Below, one piece after another: positions 7,464 to 48,458 of a stretch of DNA of 64,000 bases. Source of the DNA: an uncultured bacterium (lineage in GTDB: Bacteria > Pseudomonadota > Alphaproteobacteria > Rhodospirillales > Rhodospirillaceae). The notes below the pieces were generated by a model that ran no database searches, was not told the origin of the DNA, and was given only the letters and a program-made list of their open reading frames with translations. A program made the translations under genes and the position numbers. The stretch's first letter is position 1. Each line of letters starts with the position of its first letter. Location of the stretch: assembly GCA_903888485.1 (NCBI GenBank), contig CAISTS010000032.1:124001-188000 (forward strand), written 5' to 3'.

Positions 7464-8290
7464 CTCCGAAGCCATCTGGCGAGAAGGGCGAGCGCATCGC
7501 AAAGGTGATGGCGCGCGCAGGTCTGTGTTCGCGCCGCGATGCCGAGCGGTGGATTGCCCTCGGCCGTGTGTCCCTGAACGGCAAGGTGCTGGAAACGCCG
7601 GCACAGGTAGTGCGGGCCGGCGATGACGTGCGTGTCGATGGAAAACCGCTGCCGACGGTCGATCGCGCGCGCCTCTGGCGCTTTCACAAACCCAAAGGTC
7701 TCGTCACCACGCACAAGGACGAGAAAGGCCGCACGACGGTCTTCGACGTACTGCCGCCGGATTTGCCGCGCGTGGTCAGCATCGGGCGGCTCGATCTGAC
7801 ATCGGAAGGCTTGCTGCTGCTCACCAACGACGGTGCGCTGGCGCGCGCCATGGAGCTGCCGGAGCGCGGCTGGGTCCGCAGGTACCGCGTGCGTGTGCAC
7901 GGCCGCATCGACGACAAGATGCTCGCGCGCCTCAAGAAGGGCGTCACCGTCGATGGCGTCCGCTACGGCGCCATCGACGCCGCCATCGATAAGGTGGAAG
8001 GCGCCGATAAACCGCTGTCCAAGAGCAACACCTGGGTCACGGTGGCCTTGAGCGAAGGTAAGAACCGCGAAGTGCGCAAGGTGATGGAGTTCCTGGGGCT
8101 CACGGTGAACCGCCTCATCCGCGTGGCCTACGGCCCCTTCCAGCTCGGCAAACTCGAGCAGGGTGTGCTCGAAGAAGTGCCGGCGCAGGTGGTGCGCCAG
8201 CAGCTGGGCAGCGCCGCGCCCGCCGGACTCAATATCAAACGCAAGCGGACGCAAAGAGAACCACAGAAGAGCGATGCCGAAGAAGCTTGA
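7460..8290 (+). CDS. rluB: 23S rRNA pseudouridine synthase, RluB/RsuA family
   Basis: A 276-residue pseudouridine synthase with an N-terminal S4 RNA-binding domain (RIAKVMARAGLCSRRDAERW, about residues 10-70) and a RsuA-type catalytic domain. The catalytic Asp lies in SIGRLDLTSEGLLLLTNDG; GKNREVRKVMEFLGL and LIRVAYGPF are the other conserved blocks. The length without a long C-terminal extension and the S4 domain favour RluB (U2605 of 23S rRNA) over RluE or RluF, but RsuA-family members cannot be fully separated by eye. It starts inside the end of the upstream hydrolase gene and overlaps rsmD by 17 bp. Confidence 0.88.
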   Translation: MTPKPSGEKGERIAKVMARAGLCSRRDAERWIALGRVSLNGKVLETPAQVVRAGDDVRVDGKPLPTVDRARLWRFHKPKGLVTTHKDEKGRTTVFDVLPPDLPRVVSIGRLDLTSEGLLLLTNDGALARAMELPERGWVRRYRVRVHGRIDDKMLARLKKGVTVDGVRYGAIDAAIDKVEGADKPLSKSNTWVTVALSEGKNREVRKVMEFLGLTVNRLIRVAYGPFQLGKLEQGVLEEVPAQVVRQQLGSAAPAGLNIKRKRTQREPQKSDAEEA

Positions 8291-18261: not shown

Positions 18262-21086
18262 GCAGCCACCACGCCCACCGCGCTGTCGCAGCGCTCGCAG
18301 ACGCCCGGATGTTTATGCGTGCCGACGTCGGGCAGCACTTTCCAACACCGCAGGCACTTTTCGCCTTGGGCCAGCTCGACCACCGCACCCACACCGGCAA
18401 CATCGGGCAGTGTGTAAGCGCCTGCCGGAGCCGCGCCTTCGCGGATGTCGATGCCGGAGGTTATGCAGATGTCATCCATCGGCAGATCGCGCGCGACCGC
18501 GATGAGCTCCGCGGGCGCAAAGACCTTGGGGCTCGCCTGCAGCGATGCGCCGATCTTCTTCTCGGCGCGTGCGATCTCGAGCGCGCCGGTGACGACGCGG
18601 CGCAAGTCGCGCACTTTGGCCCATTTCTCGGCGAGCGCCGCATCGCGCCAGTCGGCCGGGATCGTGGGGAACTGCTCGAAGTGCACCGAGTTTCCATCCC
18701 CCGGATGGCGTGTGAGCCAGGCCTCTTCCGCCGTGAAGCAGATGAAGGGTGCCAGCCACTTGACCAGGCAGTCGTAGAGCGTATCGAGCACCGTGCGGGC
18801 GGCGCGGCGGCGCAGCGAGTCCGGCGCGTCGCAATACAGAACGTCCTTGCGGATGTCGAAGTAGAAGGCCGAGAGGTCCACCGCACAGAAGTTATGCAGC
18901 TCGTTGAACAGGCCGTGGAAGTCGTAACTCTCGGTGGCCTCGCGGATCTGCTTGTCCAGCTCCCACAGGCGGTGCAGTACCCAGCGCTCGAGCTCGGGCA
19001 TGTCTTTCGCCGCGACACGCTCGGTCTCGCTGAAGCCGGCGAGGTTGCCGAGCAGATAGCGGAGCGTGTTGCGCAGGCGGCGATAGAGGTCGCTCATCTG
19101 CTTGAGGATATTGGGACCGATGGAGAGGTCCTGGCTGTAGTCGCTGGCCACGACCCACAGCCGCAGGATGTCGGCGCCGGATTCCTTGGTCACGTCTTGC
19201 GGCGCGACGACGTTGCCGAGGGACTTGGACATCTTGCGCGCTTTTTCATCCAGCACGAAGCCGTGCGTCAGCACCGCATCAAAGGGCGCGCGGCCGCGCG
19301 TGCCGCAGGATTCCAGCAGCGACGTGTGGAACCAGCCGCGGTGCTGGTCGGAGCCTTCGAGATACAAGTCCGCCGGCCACTTCAGATCCTTGCGCTGCTC
19401 GAGCACGAAGGCATGCGTACAGCCGGAATCGAACCAGACCTCGACGATGTCCTGAACCTGAGTCCACTCGTCGGCCTTGTAGTCGTTGCCGAGGAAGCGT
19501 TCGGGCGGGCTGGTGAGCCAGGCGTCGCCGCCTTCCTTCTCCACCGCCACGGCGATGCGCTCGATGACCGCCGGATCGCGCAACACTTCGCCGGTTTTCT
19601 TATTCATGAAGATAGTGATCGGCACGCCCCATTGGCGCTGGCGCGAGACGCACCAGTCGGGGCGCGATTCGATCATGGCGCCGATGCGGTTCTTGCCGAG
19701 CGCCGGCACCCACTTCGTCGCCTCGATGGCGGCGAGAGCCTTTTTGCGCAGATCGTTCTTCTCCATGGAGATGAACCACTGCGGCGTGTTGCGGAAGATT
19801 AGCGGCGCCTTCGAGCGCCACGAATGCGGATAGCTGTGTTGCAGCTTGCCGTTGGCCAGCAGCGCGCCGGCCTCGCGCAACGCCGCCAGCATATCGGGGT
19901 CGATCTTGAAGACATGTTTGCCGGCAAACAACGGCACGTGCGGGTAGTACGTGCCGTCGCCCGCCACTGTCTCCGGGATCGGCACGCTGTTGGCCAGACC
20001 GAGATGATAGTCGTCCTCGCCGTGACCGGGCGCGATGTGCACGAAACCCGTGCCCGCCTCCGTCGTGACGAAGTCGCCGGGATACAGCGGCACCTCGAAG
20101 TCGTAGCCCTTGCCGTTCAGCGGATGCTTGGAGACCGTGCCCGCCAAATCCGCGCCCTTGATGCGCGCGATAACGTCATGCGCGGTGATGTCGGCGGACT
20201 TCAGGACTTGTTCGAGCAACGCGATGGCCACGGCGAAGCGTTCGCCGACGCGCGCCATGCTTTTCTCGCCGACGGCCTTCACTTCGATCACGGCGTAGTC
20301 GATGCCCGCGCCGAAGCCGATGGCGCGGTTGCCGGGAAGAGTCCACGGCGTCGTCGTCCAGATGACAATGCTGCCGCCCTTCAGCGCATCGACCTTGGTC
20401 GCGGCGATGGGGAAGCGCACCCACACCGTCGTCGATGTATGGTCCTCGTATTCGACTTCGGCATCGGCCAGCGCGGTCTTTTCGACCACCGACCACAACA
20501 CGGGCTTGGAGCCGCGATACAATCCGCCGTTCATGAGGAACTTGCCGAGTTCGCGCACGATGTTGGCCTCGGCGGCGAAGTTCATGGTCGTGTAGGGGTT
20601 GTCCCAGTCGCCGACGATGGCGAGGCGCTTGAATTCGCCCTTCTGTACTTCGACCCACTTGGCGGCGAACTCGCGGCACTGGCGGCGGAACTCGACCACT
20701 GGCACGTCGTCTTTGTTCTTACCCTTGGCGCGATACTCTTCCTCGATCTTCCATTCGATGGGCAAACCGTGGCAGTCCCAGCCCGGCACATAATTGGCGT
20801 CGAAGCCGGTCATCTGACGCGCGCGGACGATGGTGTCTTTGAGGATTTTGTTGAGCGCGTGACCGATGTGCAGATTGCCGTTGGCGTAAGGCGGGCCATC
20901 GTGCAGCACGAACTTGGGCCGGCCCGCGGAGGCCGCGCGCAGGCGTTTGTAGATGTCCAGGCCCTCCCAGCGCGCCAGCAATTTTGGTTCCAACTGCGGC
21001 AATCCGGCTTTCATGGGAAAGTCGGTGGCGGGCAGAAAGACGGTCGGGCGGTAGTCGGGAGTATTCTTTTCTGGCGCGTCGGCCAT
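18258..21086 (-). CDS. ileS: Isoleucine--tRNA ligase
   Basis: A 942-residue class I aminoacyl-tRNA synthetase of normal size. Class motifs are present: HIGH as HIGH in PPYANGNLHIGHALNK and KMSKS in KMSKSLGNVV. The editing domain contains the TTPWTLPGNRAI block. A C-terminal zinc finger (CLRCWK and CERC) marks the bacterial type normally found outside the eukaryote-like group. The ATG at 21086 gives MADAPEKNTPDYRPTVFLP; an upstream in-frame extension is unlikely. A 9-bp hairpin sits in the leader at 21132-21154. It starts the ileS-lspA-bamF operon. Confidence 0.96.
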   Translation of the reverse strand: MADAPEKNTPDYRPTVFLPATDFPMKAGLPQLEPKLLARWEGLDIYKRLRAASAGRPKFVLHDGPPYANGNLHIGHALNKILKDTIVRARQMTGFDANYVPGWDCHGLPIEWKIEEEYRAKGKNKDDVPVVEFRRQCREFAAKWVEVQKGEFKRLAIVGDWDNPYTTMNFAAEANIVRELGKFLMNGGLYRGSKPVLWSVVEKTALADAEVEYEDHTSTTVWVRFPIAATKVDALKGGSIVIWTTTPWTLPGNRAIGFGAGIDYAVIEVKAVGEKSMARVGERFAVAIALLEQVLKSADITAHDVIARIKGADLAGTVSKHPLNGKGYDFEVPLYPGDFVTTEAGTGFVHIAPGHGEDDYHLGLANSVPIPETVAGDGTYYPHVPLFAGKHVFKIDPDMLAALREAGALLANGKLQHSYPHSWRSKAPLIFRNTPQWFISMEKNDLRKKALAAIEATKWVPALGKNRIGAMIESRPDWCVSRQRQWGVPITIFMNKKTGEVLRDPAVIERIAVAVEKEGGDAWLTSPPERFLGNDYKADEWTQVQDIVEVWFDSGCTHAFVLEQRKDLKWPADLYLEGSDQHRGWFHTSLLESCGTRGRAPFDAVLTHGFVLDEKARKMSKSLGNVVAPQDVTKESGADILRLWVVASDYSQDLSIGPNILKQMSDLYRRLRNTLRYLLGNLAGFSETERVAAKDMPELERWVLHRLWELDKQIREATESYDFHGLFNELHNFCAVDLSAFYFDIRKDVLYCDAPDSLRRRAARTVLDTLYDCLVKWLAPFICFTAEEAWLTRHPGDGNSVHFEQFPTIPADWRDAALAEKWAKVRDLRRVVTGALEIARAEKKIGASLQASPKVFAPAELIAVARDLPMDDICITSGIDIREGAAPAGAYTLPDVAGVGAVVELAQGEKCLRCWKVLPDVGTHKHPGVCERCDSAVGVVAA

Positions 21087-32410: not shown

Positions 32411-32576
32411 ACTCCAGGTTGTATAAGCCCTTATTCGAGTGTCAGTTGCGGGTGTTACAACAGGCGCGTGTTATCGGCCTTTCCGACAAGCGTTGATTCA
32501 ACCCCAGCGCTCTCATATTGTCCTAATGGTTAAGAGCCCAAACAAAGATGCTCGCAGGGTGTCCGCGAATGGGGAG

Positions 32577-32615
32577 AGTCCACGGTCAACCTGTGGACTT
32601 GTCTGGGGGCAGACA
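32577..32615 (+). promoter_or_regulatory. Two tandem hairpins in the luxR leader, next to the start codon
   Basis: Stem 1 is AGTCCAC (32577-32583) with GTGGACT (32593-32599), loop of 9 nt. Stem 2 is TGTCTG (32600-32605) with CAGACA (32610-32615), loop GGGG. The ATG of luxR follows 4 nt later. The only strong G-rich ribosome-site candidate lies inside loop 2, so translation of luxR could depend on these structures. Pairing is perfect in both stems; function is inferred. Confidence 0.5.
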
Positions 32616-32619
32616 GTCG

Positions 32620-33372
32620 ATGCGTGCCGACATTGACAAGATTCTGGGCGACCTCGAAACGCTGAACAGCGCGCGTGCGTTCAAGGCGAAGTTCGAGTCC
32701 GTCTGGGCGTCGCTGGGTTTTGGCTCCTACAGTTACGCCAGCATGGATACCGAAGACCTAGAGACCGGCCGCTACAAGGAAGGCGGCCATGTCATCTACT
32801 TGTCGAACGTCAAACCCGTCTGGGTTCAGCGCTACGTCGAAGAGGCCTACGCCGACCACGATCCCTTGGTGAAGGATTGCCTCAGCGCGCGCCTGCCGCT
32901 GCAGTGGACCGAAAACTACCGCGCCAACAGCCTTTCCGCGCGCGAGACCGAGATGATGAACGACGCCAAGGACATCGGCTTGCGCAAGGGCCTGGTGATC
33001 CCCATCCACGGTCCGCGCGGCGAGCTTGGCATCTTCAGCCTCTATTCCGACCTTGAAGACGGCGAATTCACGCGCCTCACCGCAACGACCAAGTACGAGG
33101 CGCAAGTCCTGGCCTACCACCTGCACGACGCCGCATGCCGTGTCCTTGCGACGCGCGAGGCGGTGCCGATGCCGATCCCGCTGACCGACCGCGAAGTCGA
33201 GATCCTGCGCTGGACCGCGGCCGGGAAAACCGCCTGGGAGATCGGCAGCATTCTCAGCATCTCCGAGCGCACCGTGAACTTCCACGTTCAGAACGTGATG
33301 GAAAAGTTCGGCGTGCACAACAAGACCCATGCGGCCGCCAAGGCCATGGGCATGGGCCTGTTCGCGCTTTAG
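32620..33372 (+). CDS. LuxR-family acyl-homoserine-lactone receptor and transcription factor
   Basis: A 250-residue LuxR protein. The N-terminal autoinducer-binding domain keeps the ligand-contact residues in the spacing known for TraR: W68, Y72, D81, P82 and W96 (offsets +4, +13, +14, +28). KGLVIPIHGPRGELGIFSL is the later conserved block. The C-terminal helix-turn-helix (LTDREVEILRWTAAGKTAWE and SISERTVNFHVQNVMEKFGV) is complete. It is convergent with the P450 and lies 1.5 kb from luxI, so it is the probable cognate receptor and probably binds the two lux-box-like repeats at 35601 and 48173. Two hairpins precede its start. Confidence 0.92.
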   Translation: MRADIDKILGDLETLNSARAFKAKFESVWASLGFGSYSYASMDTEDLETGRYKEGGHVIYLSNVKPVWVQRYVEEAYADHDPLVKDCLSARLPLQWTENYRANSLSARETEMMNDAKDIGLRKGLVIPIHGPRGELGIFSLYSDLEDGEFTRLTATTKYEAQVLAYHLHDAACRVLATREAVPMPIPLTDREVEILRWTAAGKTAWEIGSILSISERTVNFHVQNVMEKFGVHNKTHAAAKAMGMGLFAL

Positions 33373-33417: not shown

Positions 33418-34830
33418 TCAGTGACGCAGGCGCGGTTTGACGCGCGCCCAGATGTCTTCGTGCGGGCGCAGCGTGACGAGATTTCCAAAGGCGGGCTCCT
33501 GGTCGGAGGTCACCTCGAGGTCGTAGCGGCGCAGGATCATCGACAGCGCGAAAACCATTTCCATCATCGCAAAGCCGCCGCCCACACATATTCTGGGACC
33601 CGCGCCGAAGGGGAAGTAGGCGAACTTCGATCGGCCCGCCGTGTTCTCGGGCAGGAAGCGGTCGGGATCGAACTTCTCCGGATCGTCCCACACATGCGGA
33701 TGGGTGTGGATCAAGTACTGCGAAATGAAAACCGTCGTGCCGGCCTTGATCGGCTGGCCGGCGATGTTGTCGTCGTTGATGGCAACCCGCGCGAACCACC
33801 AAATCGAGGGGCGCAGGCGCGCAACTTCCTGAACGACGCGCTTGGTGAAGTCTAGGGTCTTCATATCGCCCGCTTCCGGTATGCGGCCCGCGAGCACCTC
33901 ATCGACCTCGTCGCGCAGTTTCTCGAGGAACGCCGGCTGCTGTTTCAGCATGACCAAGGCCCAGGCGACCATGGTCGCGGTGGTGTCGTGGCCGGCAATC
34001 ATGAGGGTCATGACCTCGTCGCGCAGCTGCTGCTCGCTCATGACTTCGTTGGTGTCGGCGTCGCGCGCGTCCATCAGGATCGACAGCAAATCGTCCGAGC
34101 GGCGGCTGCTTGCGCGCCGTTCCGCGATGATGCGGGTGCATACGCCGCGCAGGTACGCGATGGCCTCATTGTCTTGGCGGTTGCGTTTGGTCGGGATCTT
34201 TTCGGTGATCGTGGTCAGGTTCCACACGCGGTCGGCGGTGACGTCGTGCGCGATGACCATGGCTTCCTTGAAGCCTTGCGCATCCGCGCCAAGGCCGGTG
34301 TCGAACATGGTCTGGAAGGCGATCTCGAGCGTCAGCGCCGAGATGTCCCACGAAAGATTGAAAGGCTCGCCGGTTTGGGCGCGCGTCTCCCAGGGCTTCA
34401 GATGAGTCTGGATCACATCCGTCATACGTCCAGCGAGCGCGTCGACGCGCTCCTTCAGGAATGACGGCTGGATCAACTTGCGCTGGCGCGTCCAAAGCTC
34501 GCCTTCACTGACGAGAAGGCCCTCGCCCATGAACGGCTTCAGCTTGCCGACCATCGGCGTCTTTCGATAGTTGCGGTAGTTCTTCTGCAAAACATGCTCG
34601 ACGTGAGCGGGATGGTTGAGCAGGTATGCTGTCGTCATGAGTATTCTCATCGGTACTATGTCGCCGTAGCTGGCGACTTTTTCCAAAAACTTCAGCGGCG
34701 TCGTGCGTAACTCAGGCAGGACTCCCATGATGGGGTGTCCCTTCGGCCCCTCGGCCGCGATCTTCGCGCGAGGGGCATTCTCTCGTTCAGCCGCCGTGAA
34801 CGTGCCGGCGGTGACTTTGGATTCCGACAT
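33418..34830 (-). CDS. Cytochrome P450, downstream of the AHL synthase
   Basis: A 470-residue soluble-type P450. The I-helix oxygen-activation motif is AGHDTT (279-284), the ExxR motif EVAR (335-338), and the heme loop FGAGPRICVGG holds the proximal Cys (C415). The sequence resembles fatty-acid and terpene-type bacterial P450s (GEGLLVSEGELWTRQRKLIQ), with no fused reductase domain. It lies 65 bp after luxI on the same strand, so it is likely expressed from the same lux-box promoter. Possible jobs are oxidising the acyl chain of the signal or making a quorum-controlled metabolite. The ATG at 34830 is preferred. Redox partners are not nearby. Confidence 0.93.
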   Translation of the reverse strand: MSESKVTAGTFTAAERENAPRAKIAAEGPKGHPIMGVLPELRTTPLKFLEKVASYGDIVPMRILMTTAYLLNHPAHVEHVLQKNYRNYRKTPMVGKLKPFMGEGLLVSEGELWTRQRKLIQPSFLKERVDALAGRMTDVIQTHLKPWETRAQTGEPFNLSWDISALTLEIAFQTMFDTGLGADAQGFKEAMVIAHDVTADRVWNLTTITEKIPTKRNRQDNEAIAYLRGVCTRIIAERRASSRRSDDLLSILMDARDADTNEVMSEQQLRDEVMTLMIAGHDTTATMVAWALVMLKQQPAFLEKLRDEVDEVLAGRIPEAGDMKTLDFTKRVVQEVARLRPSIWWFARVAINDDNIAGQPIKAGTTVFISQYLIHTHPHVWDDPEKFDPDRFLPENTAGRSKFAYFPFGAGPRICVGGGFAMMEMVFALSMILRRYDLEVTSDQEPAFGNLVTLRPHEDIWARVKPRLRH

Positions 34831-34895
34831 TCTTGCAACGAGGCTCCCTGGCGCCGGCAAATCCGGCGCGTCTCCCCTTCATAGCGTCATTCGGC

Positions 34896-35537
34896 CTAAG
34901 CGGCGACCTTGAACGCCTCGGCGCCGATGAGCGGCGCGCGCGGGGCGTCGGAGAGGCCGAGGTGCATGCGGCGCACGTTCAAATCCGAAACGTCGGCGTA
35001 GCCAGAGATCGCGCGTGTCACGCCGATCTGCAGGGGCGGACCAAAGCGCTGCGTCAACAAACCGGCGCGCTTGAGGATGCGTTCGAAGCGAACATCGGCG
35101 ACGGCGACGATGCGGCTGATCTTGCGGCGGGCAGCGAAAGCGAAGAGCTGCTCGAGCAGGAGGTTGGTGACGGTATTGATGGTGCCGAGAGATTCGTTGC
35201 TGGCGACTTTTTTTGACACAGCGAAGCGGCTGATCTCCCAGACGTCCTCGGCTTCGGGCGCCGGCATGCCGTAGAGCAGTTCGGGGAACACGTCTTTCAG
35301 CATATACGGGCGGGTCGTGGGCAGGAGACGCCACGAGCCGAGCACTTCGCCCTGGGCCTCGCAGACGATGTAGACGGGATCGAGATCGTCGAACATGTCG
35401 CGTTCGCGTCCGGCCTGCGAGCCGACTTCCCAATCCAGGCGCTCTTTGAAAACTTCGTGACGCAGCCGGAACATGCCATCCAACTTGCGGGATGCATCCG
35501 CGGTCGCTTCCGGCATTTCGATGATCGATGCGAGCAT
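34896..35537 (-). CDS. LuxI-family acyl-homoserine-lactone synthase
   Basis: A 213-residue AHL synthase making a signal from S-adenosylmethionine and an acyl carrier. All hallmark residues are present: R26 and F30 (FRLRHEVF), W36 (LDWEV), D47 and D50 (RERDMFDD), R70 (GSWRLLPTT), E101 and R104 (WEISRF). They sit two positions after those of EsaI. The ATG at 35537 has GGGGGTAG upstream; the frame is open further 5' but that would cover the lux box. The lux-box-like repeat at 35601-35620 lies 63 nt upstream. The P450 follows in the same transcript. The acyl chain of the product cannot be read from sequence. Confidence 0.95.
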   Translation of the reverse strand: MLASIIEMPEATADASRKLDGMFRLRHEVFKERLDWEVGSQAGRERDMFDDLDPVYIVCEAQGEVLGSWRLLPTTRPYMLKDVFPELLYGMPAPEAEDVWEISRFAVSKKVASNESLGTINTVTNLLLEQLFAFAARRKISRIVAVADVRFERILKRAGLLTQRFGPPLQIGVTRAISGYADVSDLNVRRMHLGLSDAPRAPLIGAEAFKVAA

Positions 35538-35600: not shown

Positions 35601-35620
35601 ACCTGTCAGAACTGACAGGT
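35601..35620. promoter_or_regulatory. lux-box-like operator upstream of luxI
   Basis: ACCTGTCAGAACTGACAGGT: two perfect 9-bp arms around a 2-bp centre, the length and CTG/CAG pattern of known lux boxes. It lies 63 nt before the luxI ATG. No good -10 or -35 is visible toward luxI, which fits a promoter that needs LuxR-AHL for activity. An identical pair of arms occurs at 48173-48192. Confidence 0.85.
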
Positions 35621-35925
35621 CCGGGCCCAACTAAAGAGGTGCAAGGTGCCGACACAACCGCGCTGAAGCTCTTGCAAAACCCAGGAATATTCAGCGAAAT
35701 CAACGAGTTGTCGGGGCTAGAGCTCCAGGAAAGACGACCACGAAAAGCGCTCCGGTGCGGGCCGGTCTGGTGTCATCCAAACGCCGCCTGAAGCGCCAAA
35801 AAAAACTGCCGGATGGCGTGGCGCCGCAGGGGACCCAGCTAAAGCATTGGGAAACCTCGGAAAAGCCAGGAAACAAGCCCGATTAAGGGTGTCGTTCGGT
35901 CGGCAATGGAACCTGGAGCCGGATC
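35621..35925. other. Intergenic region upstream of luxI, no clear gene
   Basis: About 300 bp, lower in GC than the surroundings, with an A-rich patch near 35798. A GTG at 35639 opens a 50-codon frame (ends about 35791) directly after AAAGAGG, but it lies only 18 bp from the lux box and is weakly supported. No hairpin or promoter stands out. Confidence 0.4.
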
Positions 35926-36141
35926 ATGACGCACTTCGCACGCCCCCTGCCCCCGTTTTGGGCGGGCTCTAAAACCTCCTCTTCGGCTGTCGCCGTGGCC
36001 GAGTCGCAATCCGCAGCCACCCCCGCCCGCCCAACCGCCAGCGCCGCCGTGTCCCTGACCGTCGCGCTGCGCTACATGGCGGCGCGGCGCACGCGTGAGA
36101 CGATTGCCGCGGCGCTCGAGCCGGCGCTCCACGGGCTCTAA
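35926..36141 (+). CDS. Possible small protein upstream of the aminotransferase
   Basis: A 71-codon frame with ATG at 35926 preceded by GGAG at 9 nt. About 85% of third codon positions are G or C, as in the real genes around it. The first half is rich in Ser, Ala and Pro; the second half (VALRYMAARRTRETIAAALE) should form a basic amphipathic helix. No family recognised. It is the first of three plus-strand frames leading into the GSAM-like gene. Confidence 0.42.
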   Translation: MTHFARPLPPFWAGSKTSSSAVAVAESQSAATPARPTASAAVSLTVALRYMAARRTRETIAAALEPALHGL

Positions 36142-46006: not shown

Positions 46007-46873
46007 ATGACCGCCGCTCCCCACAAAGACTCGACCCCCGTTACCCGCTTTGCCCCAAGCCCCACAGGCTATGTGCATCTCGGAACGGCCTATTCGGCCC
46101 TTTTCGCCGCCAACGCGGCCGGACCGCGCGAGCGTTTCATCCTGCGCATCGAGGACATCGACACCGGCCGGGCCAGGCCGGAATTCGAGACGGCGATTTT
46201 CGAAGACCTCGCTTGGCTGGGCCTTCAATGGGAGCAGCCCGTGCGCCGTCAGTCGGAGCACTTCGCCGCCTATGCCGCCGTCACCGCCGACATGGAGAAA
46301 CAGGACCTGCTCTATCCGTGTTTCTGCACCCGCGCCGAGATCGCGCGCGAGATTGCCGCAGCATCGACCGCGCCGCACCTCGCGGCGGGTCCGGACGGCC
46401 CGGTTTATCCCGGCACCTGCCGGCACCTGACGGGCACCGAGCGCCGCCGGCGCATTGACGCCGGCACGCCTTATGCCCTGCGCCTGCGCGTGGATGCGGC
46501 TAAGGAGATGACCGGACCGTTGACCTGGACCGATGCCGCGCGCGGCACGGTGGACGCCACGCCGGAAATTTTCGGTGATGTCGTACTGGCCCGCAAAGAC
46601 ACGCCGGCGAGTTATCACCTCGCGTGTACCTGGGACGATGCGCTGCAGGGCGTGACTTTGGTCACGCGCGGCGAGGAACTGGCGCCGGCGACGCACATCC
46701 ATCGTCTGCTGCAAGCCCTATGGAAAGTGCCGACGCCGCGCTACCACCATCACAAGCTAGTGCTCGCTCCGGACGGCAAGAAGCTGTCGAAGCGCGATAA
46801 AGCGCTCACCCTCCGCGCTTTACGCGCAGAGGGCAAGACTCCCGAAGACATCAAGGCAATGGTAGGACTTTAA
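46007..46873 (+). CDS. gluQ: Glutamyl-Q tRNA(Asp) synthetase
   Basis: GluQRS attaches glutamate to queuosine in tRNA-Asp. The 288-residue protein is a GluRS catalytic domain without an anticodon-binding domain, which defines the family. Class I motifs are visible: RFAPSPTGYVHLGTAYSAL (HIGH region), RIEDIDTGRARPEFE, YPCFCTRAEI with the zinc cysteines, and KLSKRDKALTL (KMSKS region). It fits functionally with queE/D/C, also in this window. The stop overlaps the acyltransferase stop. Confidence 0.93.
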   Translation: MTAAPHKDSTPVTRFAPSPTGYVHLGTAYSALFAANAAGPRERFILRIEDIDTGRARPEFETAIFEDLAWLGLQWEQPVRRQSEHFAAYAAVTADMEKQDLLYPCFCTRAEIAREIAAASTAPHLAAGPDGPVYPGTCRHLTGTERRRRIDAGTPYALRLRVDAAKEMTGPLTWTDAARGTVDATPEIFGDVVLARKDTPASYHLACTWDDALQGVTLVTRGEELAPATHIHRLLQALWKVPTPRYHHHKLVLAPDGKKLSKRDKALTLRALRAEGKTPEDIKAMVGL

Positions 46874-48111
46874 CGGCCTGCCGGTGTCGGCAGGCCGGCG
46901 TGAAACTGCAGCAGCGCCAGCGCCCGCCGGTATTTCTGACCGTTGAGCGCACAGCCGATGAAGGTGGCGCGCGCGAACACGTCATAGGTCACAAAGCCGA
47001 AGATGGCCGCGGCGCTCATGACGATGATCATCTTCGCGCCGGCCGTCAGATGCGCGCCCGACAGCATGCCGACCAGAAACAACAGGAACGGCAAGTGCAC
47101 GAGGTACACCCAGTAGGAACCATCGACGATGTAACGCATCACCGCCGAGGGTTTATCGAGATAGCGCAGGAACAGACCAGTCGCGCCAAAGAACATCATC
47201 CAGGCAACGATACCGCCGGTTACTGACCACAGCGCGAGCGCACCGCCGGTGTGCTGATCGGCGCCGAAAACCGGCGAGATGAAATACTTCACGGCGATGT
47301 AGATCGCGAGCGCGCCCGCGACCTGCGCCCAGGCGAGGCGCGTAAAGCCGGCGATCAGGTCGCGCTGCGCATACAGCAGCCAGCCGAAGCCGAAGAACAC
47401 GCCGTAGGCAATCACGATGAAAGCGTCCGGAATGAATACGGTCGTGGTGTGCAGGAAGCCCTGCATCGGGGCGAGCGTGAAGGCCGTCACAATGCCCGGC
47501 ACGATCACACGCAACACTGGTTGCTGAACGAGCGCGCGAAATACACGCGCAACGCCTGCGCGGAACGCGGCCGGAAGATGCTTGCAAGCCGCGGCAATCA
47601 CGACGGCGCCGACATAGAAGTAGAGCAGGTAATAGAGGAACCACAGGTGCATGGTGAACGTGGGCAGATAAGGCGGCGAGGTCTGCGCCACCGCCCAGAC
47701 CGCGCGCCAGCCCGCGGCGATGCCGCCCTTGGCCGCGACGTTGGCGAAGATGAAGGCGAAGTTGGTGGCCGGGAACAGCAGCAGCAGCGCGATGGCGAAG
47801 GGAATGCCGATGCGCTTGACGCGGTTCTCAAGCAGGCCGGCGGCGCCGCGCTTGCTGTACAGCATGGCGGCGAACAAGCCGGCCAGCACAAAGAAGATCG
47901 GCATGCGGAAGACGTGGATGAAGGACACCAGGAAATCGGCCGAGCCGCTGAGCGCGGCGTCCTGATAGGGCCAGACCTTGCCGAGGCCGATCACCATGTA
48001 GGAACATGCGCCGTGCAAGACGAGGCCCAGCAGCATCATGGTGCCGCGCAAGCCGTCGAGCGCGTGCATGCGCTCCGTGCTGTCCGCAACTGCGCTCTGT
48101 CCGTCAGCCAT
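46870..48111 (-). CDS. Membrane acyltransferase-3 family protein (OpgC-like), preceded by a lux box
   Basis: A 413-residue protein with about ten transmembrane segments. The acyltransferase-3 signatures are HALDGLRGTMMLLGLVLHG (catalytic His region), VFRMPIFFVLAGLFAAMLY and SYWVYLVHLPFLLF. These enzymes move acyl groups onto periplasmic or surface carbohydrates, for example OpgC succinylating glucans. The ATG at 48111 is supported by an AGAGGA site. The lux-box-like repeat at 48173-48192 is 61 nt upstream, nearly the same spacing as at luxI, so quorum control is likely. The substrate is unknown. Confidence 0.9.
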   Translation of the reverse strand: MADGQSAVADSTERMHALDGLRGTMMLLGLVLHGACSYMVIGLGKVWPYQDAALSGSADFLVSFIHVFRMPIFFVLAGLFAAMLYSKRGAAGLLENRVKRIGIPFAIALLLLFPATNFAFIFANVAAKGGIAAGWRAVWAVAQTSPPYLPTFTMHLWFLYYLLYFYVGAVVIAAACKHLPAAFRAGVARVFRALVQQPVLRVIVPGIVTAFTLAPMQGFLHTTTVFIPDAFIVIAYGVFFGFGWLLYAQRDLIAGFTRLAWAQVAGALAIYIAVKYFISPVFGADQHTGGALALWSVTGGIVAWMMFFGATGLFLRYLDKPSAVMRYIVDGSYWVYLVHLPFLLFLVGMLSGAHLTAGAKMIIVMSAAAIFGFVTYDVFARATFIGCALNGQKYRRALALLQFHAGLPTPAGR

Positions 48112-48172: not shown

Positions 48173-48192
48173 ACCTGTCAGCTCTGACAGGT
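48173..48192. promoter_or_regulatory. Second lux-box-like operator, upstream of the acyltransferase
   Basis: ACCTGTCAGCTCTGACAGGT: arms identical to the repeat before luxI, only the 2-bp centre differs (CT against AA). It lies 61 nt before the acyltransferase ATG, against 63 nt at luxI. On the other side it overlaps the -35 of a plus-strand promoter. Confidence 0.82.
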
Positions 48193-48308: not shown

Positions 48309-48458
48309 ATGTATGCCAAGGCTGTTGCGGGAACGCGATATCAGTTCGCGGACCTGCGCACGCTCCTCGCCAAGGCTTCGCCGTTGCGCTCGGGCGATGT
48401 GCTCGCGGGGCTGGCCGCCGGCGACGGGACCGAAAGCGGCGCGGCGCTGCTCGGCTAA
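48309..48458 (+). pseudogene. eutB: Truncated ethanolamine ammonia-lyase large subunit (N-terminal fragment)
   Basis: The 49-codon frame reads like the extreme N-terminus of EutB: YQFADLRTLLAKASPLRSGD followed by VLAGLAAG, matching the EutB pattern YxFxDxxxxLAKAxxxRSGDxLAG. After that the sequence diverges and stops, whereas a full EutB has more than 450 residues. No eutC or other eut genes are near. This is most simply a deletion remnant of a B12-dependent enzyme; a retained mini-protein cannot be excluded, since a promoter-like sequence lies upstream. It is too short to be judged by length alone; the motif makes the case. Confidence 0.72.

What the first reader, a model, noticed from the sequence alone, without database searches (positions are those of the whole stretch)
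48173..48192. Second lux box with identical arms 12.5 kb away, before an acyltransferase
ACCTGTCAG/CTGACAGGT occurs twice in the window, 35601-35620 and 48173-48192, with only the 2-bp centre different. Distances to the start codons are 63 and 61 nt. Two chance 18-base matches with the same geometry are very unlikely. This suggests a regulon that adds acyl groups to a surface or periplasmic polymer when cells are dense.
Basis: partly seen in the sequence, partly recalled or inferred. Interest (0 to 1): 0.8.

Follow-up and report, generated by a model that had tools for sequence, protein, structure and literature searches.

The report
Quorum-sensing switch before envelope acyltransferase
A perfect binding site for a cell-density sensor lies in front of a gene for a membrane enzyme that probably adds acyl groups outside the cell, and comparison with relatives suggests a small quorum-sensing circuit whose most widespread target is an undescribed small RNA.

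Summary
Two perfect lux-type palindromes lie 61 and 63 nt before an acyltransferase gene and luxI; the 3.49-Mb genome holds only one other site within 3 mismatches. The LuxR reading is well supported: luxI, a P450 gene and luxR sit together, and 15 of the 16 genomes with a close luxI keep the box (the 16th is cut by a contig end).

Box 2 is an accessory branch. Its acyltransferase-3 (MdoC/OpgC-like) gene is in 3 of 19 genus genomes; of the other two, one keeps a box (2 mismatches), one has none. Another genus independently shows luxR, lux box and an MdoC-like acyltransferase in a row. No OpgG or cyclic-glucan marker was found, so the acceptor is unknown.

The wider target is elsewhere: a tandem pair of boxes, 33 bp apart in 26 of 31 loci, firing into a ~100-nt terminator-ended stretch without Rfam match, a probable quorum-regulated sRNA. 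Its conserved core matches the ribosome-binding site of a small gene divergent from luxI; this site beats all other stretches of its region in 10 of 15 genomes, but co-variation is only weakly significant (p 0.047). Nothing was measured experimentally.

The parts
48173..48192 (.). Box 2: perfect lux-type palindrome, 61 nt before the acyltransferase start codon
46870..48111 (-). Acyltransferase-3 gene (PF01757), MdoC/OpgC-like; R-X10-H at residues 22-33, RVKR at 97, SYWVY at 332
   Evidence: motif meaning from PMC9833829 passages
35601..35620 (.). Box 1: same arms, 63 nt before luxI; kept with 0-1 mismatch in 15 of 16 genomes with a close luxI
34896..35537 (-). luxI, acyl-homoserine-lactone synthase (PF00765)
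33418..34860 (-). Cytochrome P450 gene just after luxI on the same strand (true start uncertain)
32548..33372 (+). luxR (PF03472 + PF00196), the only autoinducer-domain protein found in the genome; true start uncertain
35926..36141 (+). ORF1, conserved small gene (71 aa here, starts MTH) divergent from luxI
35905..35915 (+). AATGGAACCTG before the ORF1 start, complementary to the core of the probable sRNA encoded on contig C2
36433..37689 (+). Class-III aminotransferase gene (PF00202) downstream of ORF1 on the same strand; operon inferred

Best explanation
Box 2 is an operator for the LuxR protein encoded at 32548-33372. At high density the LuxI product binds LuxR; the dimer binds boxes 1 and 2 about 60 nt before each start codon and recruits RNA polymerase to luxI (with the P450 gene) and to the acyltransferase gene. 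The acyltransferase then moves acyl groups across the inner membrane onto an unidentified envelope sugar. The same LuxR binds a tandem box pair on another contig and drives a ~100-nt sRNA whose conserved open core pairs next to the ribosome-binding site of ORF1, in the unit divergent from luxI, and probably represses it. Shown by sequence: boxes, rarity, gene content, conservation, tandem spacing, complementarity. Inferred: binding, activation, AHL dependence, transcription of the sRNA, direction of its effect, acyl donor and acceptor. The confidence is for box 2 being a LuxR operator that raises the acyltransferase gene; the sRNA part is rated in the section on the most novel reading.
For: Exact box and rarity. 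One LuxI/LuxR pair 12.5 kb away with the identical box before luxI. Box before luxI in 15 of 16 genomes with close luxI. G010 keeps a box before the orthologous acyltransferase: 17 of 20 positions identical, against 37 of 63 and 36 of 62 alignment columns in the flanks. Independent luxR - box - MdoC-like acyltransferase order in G075. AT3 motifs intact. Tandem sites: spacing 33 bp in 26 of 31 loci, beside the same hydrolase gene in 31 of 31, core-plus-terminator motif in 27 of 31.
Against: Only two genomes show the box before this acyltransferase; the third orthologue (G009) has none within 5 mismatches, though its luxI region is also disrupted or missing. The G010 box has 2 arm mismatches. 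No -10 element is conserved between the two acyltransferase promoters (by eye). G022 keeps tandem boxes without luxI or an autoinducer-domain LuxR being found. No expression or binding data exist here.
Confidence: 0.72

Rival explanations
1. LuxR binds box 2 but represses the acyltransferase gene, or the site is occupied without effect.
For: In Brucella an AHL lowered opgC about 2-fold (PMC2898763, passages), so the sign can differ; no shared -10 element is seen at box 2 (by eye).
Against: Distance to the start codon matches that at luxI (61 and 63 nt).
Confidence: 0.18
2. Box 2 is a chance or relic palindrome without function.
For: The gene is rare and one orthologue has no box.
Against: Exact 18-base match, 0 in shuffles; conserved in G010 above its flanks; independent recurrence in G075.
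Confidence: 0.06
3. The tandem-box stretch is not an sRNA gene but a leader or readthrough product, and the match of its core to the ORF1 ribosome-binding site is accidental.
For: The core is short. An 11-nt match of some part of the RNA within the window is expected by chance (3 seen). AATGGAACCTG is expected about 1.7 times per genome (my estimate) and is seen twice, once at the RNA itself. Swap test p = 0.047 without kinship correction. Pairing is poor in G002, G010, G015, G020 and G066. RNAalifold supports only the terminator helix.
Against: Boxes, core and terminator are kept together across 7 genera; the ORF1 site is the best of 370 ORF starts in the window and of its region in 10 of 15 genomes; shuffled cores reach the real energy in under 5% of 1000 trials in 10 of 13 genomes.
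Confidence: 0.4

Closest known systems
LuxI/LuxR systems with a lux box before the synthase gene (NspI/NspR1 of Nitrospira, PMC8553950, passages)
   Same: 20-bp ACCTG...CAGGT palindrome 81 bp before the synthase gene, shared with a divergent gene; very few confirmed targets.
   Different: Different inner letters and neighbours; here an acyltransferase and a probable sRNA are targets, and P450 lies beside luxI.
OpgC/MdoC succinyltransferases of periplasmic glucans (PMC4726272, search listing only; PMC9833829, passages)
   Same: Acyltransferase-3 membrane protein; MdoC is the only NCBIfam match.
   Different: 145.5 bits against a cut-off of 338; no OpgG found; predicted control by LuxR rather than osmolarity.
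Lrs1, quorum-regulated sRNA of Pseudomonas aeruginosa (PMC11949849, abstract and passages)
   Same: A small RNA whose promoter depends on a LuxR-type regulator.
   Different: Lrs1 lies in the pqsA promoter region; this stretch has tandem boxes at fixed spacing beside a hydrolase gene and matches no Rfam family in the 4 loci searched.

Membership tests
LuxR/lux-box regulon | 20-bp palindrome of lux type at promoter distance from the start codon | tested here: met
LuxR/lux-box regulon | cognate LuxI and LuxR encoded in the genome | tested here: met
LuxR/lux-box regulon | site conserved before the orthologous gene in relatives | tested here: inconclusive
   kept with 2 mismatches in G010, absent in G009
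LuxR/lux-box regulon | AHL-dependent binding and expression | not testable with these tools
   needs bench work
Acyltransferase-3 (PF01757) | profile match and R-X10-H, RXXR, SXXXY motifs | tested here: met
   81 bits, cut-off 31; motifs as described in PMC9833829
OpgC/MdoC equivalog | score above the NCBIfam cut-off (NF003014) | tested here: not met
   145.5 against 338 bits
OpgC/MdoC equivalog | glucan backbone synthesis genes in the genome | tested here: not met
   PF04349 in 0 of 5 genomes; PF10091 in 0 of 3 (its use as a cyclic-glucan marker is recalled)
Quorum-regulated base-pairing sRNA | LuxR-type promoter and intrinsic terminator around a conserved non-coding stretch | tested here: met
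   tandem boxes in 30 of 31 loci (partner box allowed up to 6 mismatches), core-plus-terminator motif in 27 of 31
Quorum-regulated base-pairing sRNA | conserved pairing with a target mRNA supported by co-variation | tested here: inconclusive
   best site of its region in 10 of 15 genomes; swap test p = 0.047
Quorum-regulated base-pairing sRNA | discrete transcript | not testable with these tools
   no expression data

The most novel reading that the evidence does not exclude
A family of alphaproteobacteria runs a minimal quorum circuit whose most widespread output is an sRNA. LuxR on two boxes a near-constant 33 bp apart (44 bp, one helical turn more, in one species) switches on an RNA that silences the unit divergently transcribed from the luxI promoter, an incoherent feed-forward loop. 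Protein targets such as the MdoC-like acyltransferase are added lineage by lineage through gain of a single box.
Probability: 0.45. Interest if true: 0.75.

Novelty: new variant of a known kind. Interest (0 to 1): 0.55.

Why it matters
If true, it gives a quorum-sensing regulon small enough to list almost fully from sequence, links cell density to acylation of an envelope sugar, and adds a conserved LuxR-driven sRNA whose proposed target can be tested by matched changes in a laboratory host. It also suggests how such regulons grow: a fixed core (luxI and the RNA) plus single boxes gained before accessory genes (the acyltransferase here, an acyl-AMP ligase in another genus).

Tried and rejected
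Periplasmic-glucan reading: left unproven, since searches for OpgG and a cyclic-glucan marker found nothing.

'G009 lost luxI and so lost box 2': one search finds no luxI there, but its luxI locus falls across two contig ends whose sequence looks to me like transposase (by eye, not searched). Loss is likely, not certain, and one genome proves little.

Whole-RNA duplex scan of the window was uninformative, as G+C-rich duplexes dominate. Its seed-only scan ranked a stretch overlapping box 1 just ahead of the ORF1 site (-24.0 against -23.9).

Weak full-length hits of the RNA model (G015:C7, G011:C1, G014:C17, G012:C191) have no lux box within 5 mismatches and are treated as chance; the other weak full-length hits were not looked at.

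At 3 mismatches the pattern is near noise in relatives: the reversed control occurs in 13 of 37 genomes, so family-wide counts use 2 mismatches. Even then some sites are at other genes or inside a gene (L096, L103, L106, L108) and are not claimed.

First pairing test used a wrong core in G001, G002 and G024; redone (p went from 0.026 to 0.047). Not: G003, G004, G009, G017, G022 (ORF1 region not in hand or not tested), G014 (ORF1 but no sRNA found), G024 (ORF1 start not settled). One search added G066 (fails: 44 of 171 stretches as good or better) and G091 (passes: 0 of 163). G089 has an ORF1, but its sRNA was not retrieved.

Solved-structure search with the acyltransferase found nothing. Paper search for the box letters listed 15 of 171 papers, none on quorum sensing by title. 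and passages of PMC3386692, PMC5479921 and PMC8553950 showed no luxI-P450 neighbour pair; the MOLA 401 authors do propose a P450 acting on AHL chains. The listings showed no such sRNA in this group by title or abstract start; the library lacks most subscription papers.

Full report
What is there. The two palindromes are exact and their coordinates right. The window is contig C32:124001-188000 of a 3.49-Mb, 89-contig genome, 90.84% complete. Within 3 mismatches that genome holds three sites and none for the reversed pattern: box 1, box 2, and a third on contig C2.

The quorum system. Box 1 lies 63 nt before luxI (PF00765, E 1e-41), followed on the same strand by a cytochrome P450 gene; luxR (PF03472 + PF00196) lies beyond on the other strand. 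It is the only PF03472 protein found in the genome; its closest solved relatives by sequence are LasR and CviR. Sixteen of 61 genomes searched, own included, carry a luxI at least 74% identical. In 15 of them the box stands before luxI with 0-1 mismatch, in most followed by a TATGGTGATCT-like element at -10 distance; G019 differs there. In the sixteenth, G003, luxI begins at base 17 of its contig. The 15 loci were in hand because they held a box, but only G003 is missing from the 16. Titles of named relatives are Rhodospirillaceae, Alphaproteobacteria or 'Candidatus Marinimicrobia' MAGs, with two Rhodobacteraceae-type records at 37%.

Box 2 and its gene. The gene at 46870-48111 is an acyltransferase-3 (81 bits, cut-off 31). 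MdoC is its only NCBIfam match, 145.5 bits against a cut-off of 338. It has R-X10-H, RXXR and SXXXY motifs, described for AT3 proteins in PMC9833829 (passages). An orthologue was found in 3 of 37 genomes, all in the genus (3 of 19): G000, G010 (69%) and G009 (56%). In G010 the box has 2 arm mismatches; counting the centre, 17 of 20 positions are identical, against 37 of 63 and 36 of 62 alignment columns in the flanks. G009 has no box within 5 mismatches on its 5.5-kb contig. No luxI was found in G009, and the places where luxI and box 1 should lie are replaced by other sequence at contig ends. An independent case exists in genus g15: in G075 a luxR ends 17 nt before a one-mismatch box, which lies 57 nt before another acyltransferase-3. 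That protein's only NCBIfam match is again MdoC (84.3 bits), and it is 28% identical to ours over 252 residues. The stretch SERTVNFHV of the DNA-binding domain is identical in the two LuxR proteins. No luxI was hit at E 1e-4 in the 18 kb fetched there.

Which polymer. OpgG (PF04349) was found in 0 of 5 genomes while the E. coli control was found; PF10091, recalled as a cyclic-glucan-synthase domain, in 0 of 3. The acceptor is open. In Brucella an AHL lowered opgC about 2-fold, also without VjbR (PMC2898763, passages): density control of such enzymes has a published parallel, of opposite sign.

The third site leads to the widest branch. It is a tandem pair of boxes beside the 3' end of an alpha/beta-hydrolase gene (PF00561; prolyl-iminopeptidase-like by my reading). 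I examined 31 such loci in 30 genomes (G096 has two) of 7 genera. The hydrolase gene is present in 31 of 31. Spacing is 33 bp in 26, 34 in 3, 44 in 1, and no partner was found in 1; the partner box was allowed up to 6 mismatches. 44 is 33 plus one helical turn. The pair points into about 90-100 nt ending in a G+C hairpin and T run; a TTCCA-core-plus-terminator motif is found in 27 of 31 loci (G006 has ATCCA, and G064, G088 and one G096 locus were not resolved). RNAalifold on 18 members supports only the terminator helix, 8 pairs. Rfam has no match other than tRNAs in the 4 loci searched. A covariance model built from the 18 finds 19 of 61 genomes at 56 bits or more: those 18 and G022; everything else is at 33.4 bits or less. 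In the family, 32 of 73 genomes have a site within 2 mismatches, while the reversed control occurs in 1. In genus g7 another box precedes an acyl-AMP ligase gene in G024, G064, G066 and G067, a further lineage-specific target.

What the RNA may do. Its conserved core (GACAAGTTCCATTACCC in most; mean unpaired probability 0.56-0.91 in 18 RNAs, against 0.37-0.54 upstream) is complementary to AATGGAACTTG just before the GGAG of ORF1, a conserved small gene divergent from luxI and upstream of a class-III aminotransferase gene. In the own genome the 11-mer complement is found twice, at the RNA itself and here, with about 1.7 expected by my estimate. Among 370 ORF starts in the window, many of them spurious, this one is best: -22.6 against -18.3 kcal/mol. 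In 9 of 13 genomes it beats every other 36-nt stretch tested in the box-to-aminotransferase region (161-344 each); with G066 and G091 it is 10 of 15. Shuffled cores do as well in under 5% of 1000 trials in 10 of 13 genomes; the exceptions are G015 (51), G002 (130) and G020 (257). Against it: G002, G010, G015, G020 and G066 pair poorly, and the swap test gives p = 0.047 without correction for kinship. Reading the letters, paired changes keep the match in G000, G026, G005 and partly G019, while G006 and G010 carry one-sided changes that weaken it. Pairing next to a Shine-Dalgarno sequence usually represses (general knowledge); direction was not tested.

Reading. Box 2 is best explained as a real, accessory LuxR operator on an envelope acyltransferase, added to a small circuit whose constant parts are luxI and the tandem-box RNA. 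A LuxR-dependent sRNA has a parallel in Lrs1 of Pseudomonas (PMC11949849, abstract and passages), and a lux box shared by a synthase gene and a divergent gene in Nitrospira (PMC8553950, passages). New here are the combination, the fixed tandem spacing and the RNA family. All regulation is inferred.

Unsolved. G022 (100% complete) keeps tandem boxes and RNA, but neither luxI nor an autoinducer-domain LuxR was found; another regulator may bind there, or the pair is a relic.

Noticed in passing
window 33418-34860: A cytochrome P450 gene sits between luxI and luxR here and in most relatives with this luxI; it might act on the AHL signal. Paper searches showed no such neighbour pair.
   Followed up: partly
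window 48309-48458: A 49-aa reading frame matches only the N-terminus of ethanolamine ammonia-lyase EutB (30.8 bits), right of box 2: probably a gene remnant.
   Followed up: partly
L046:8671-8762 (G024), also L087, L091, L094: In genus g7 a lux box with 1 mismatch precedes an acyl-AMP ligase gene in four genomes: a lineage-specific target.
   Followed up: partly
L056 about 8140-8192 (G022): Tandem lux boxes and the RNA are kept in a 100% complete genome in which no luxI and no autoinducer-domain LuxR was found.
   Followed up: partly
L085 and L086 contig ends (G009): The luxI/box-1 region seems replaced by transposase-like sequence (by eye) while P450, luxR and ORF1 remain.
   Followed up: partly
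window 35621-35645: About 20 nt to the right of box 1 a G(T/C)GCA element is conserved in the 14 genomes aligned, which suggests that box 1 also drives transcription rightwards to ORF1.
   Followed up: partly
L039 about 19455-19868 (G010): The gene upstream of the G010 box ends in what looks like a PEP-CTERM-type sorting tail (read by eye).
   Followed up: no
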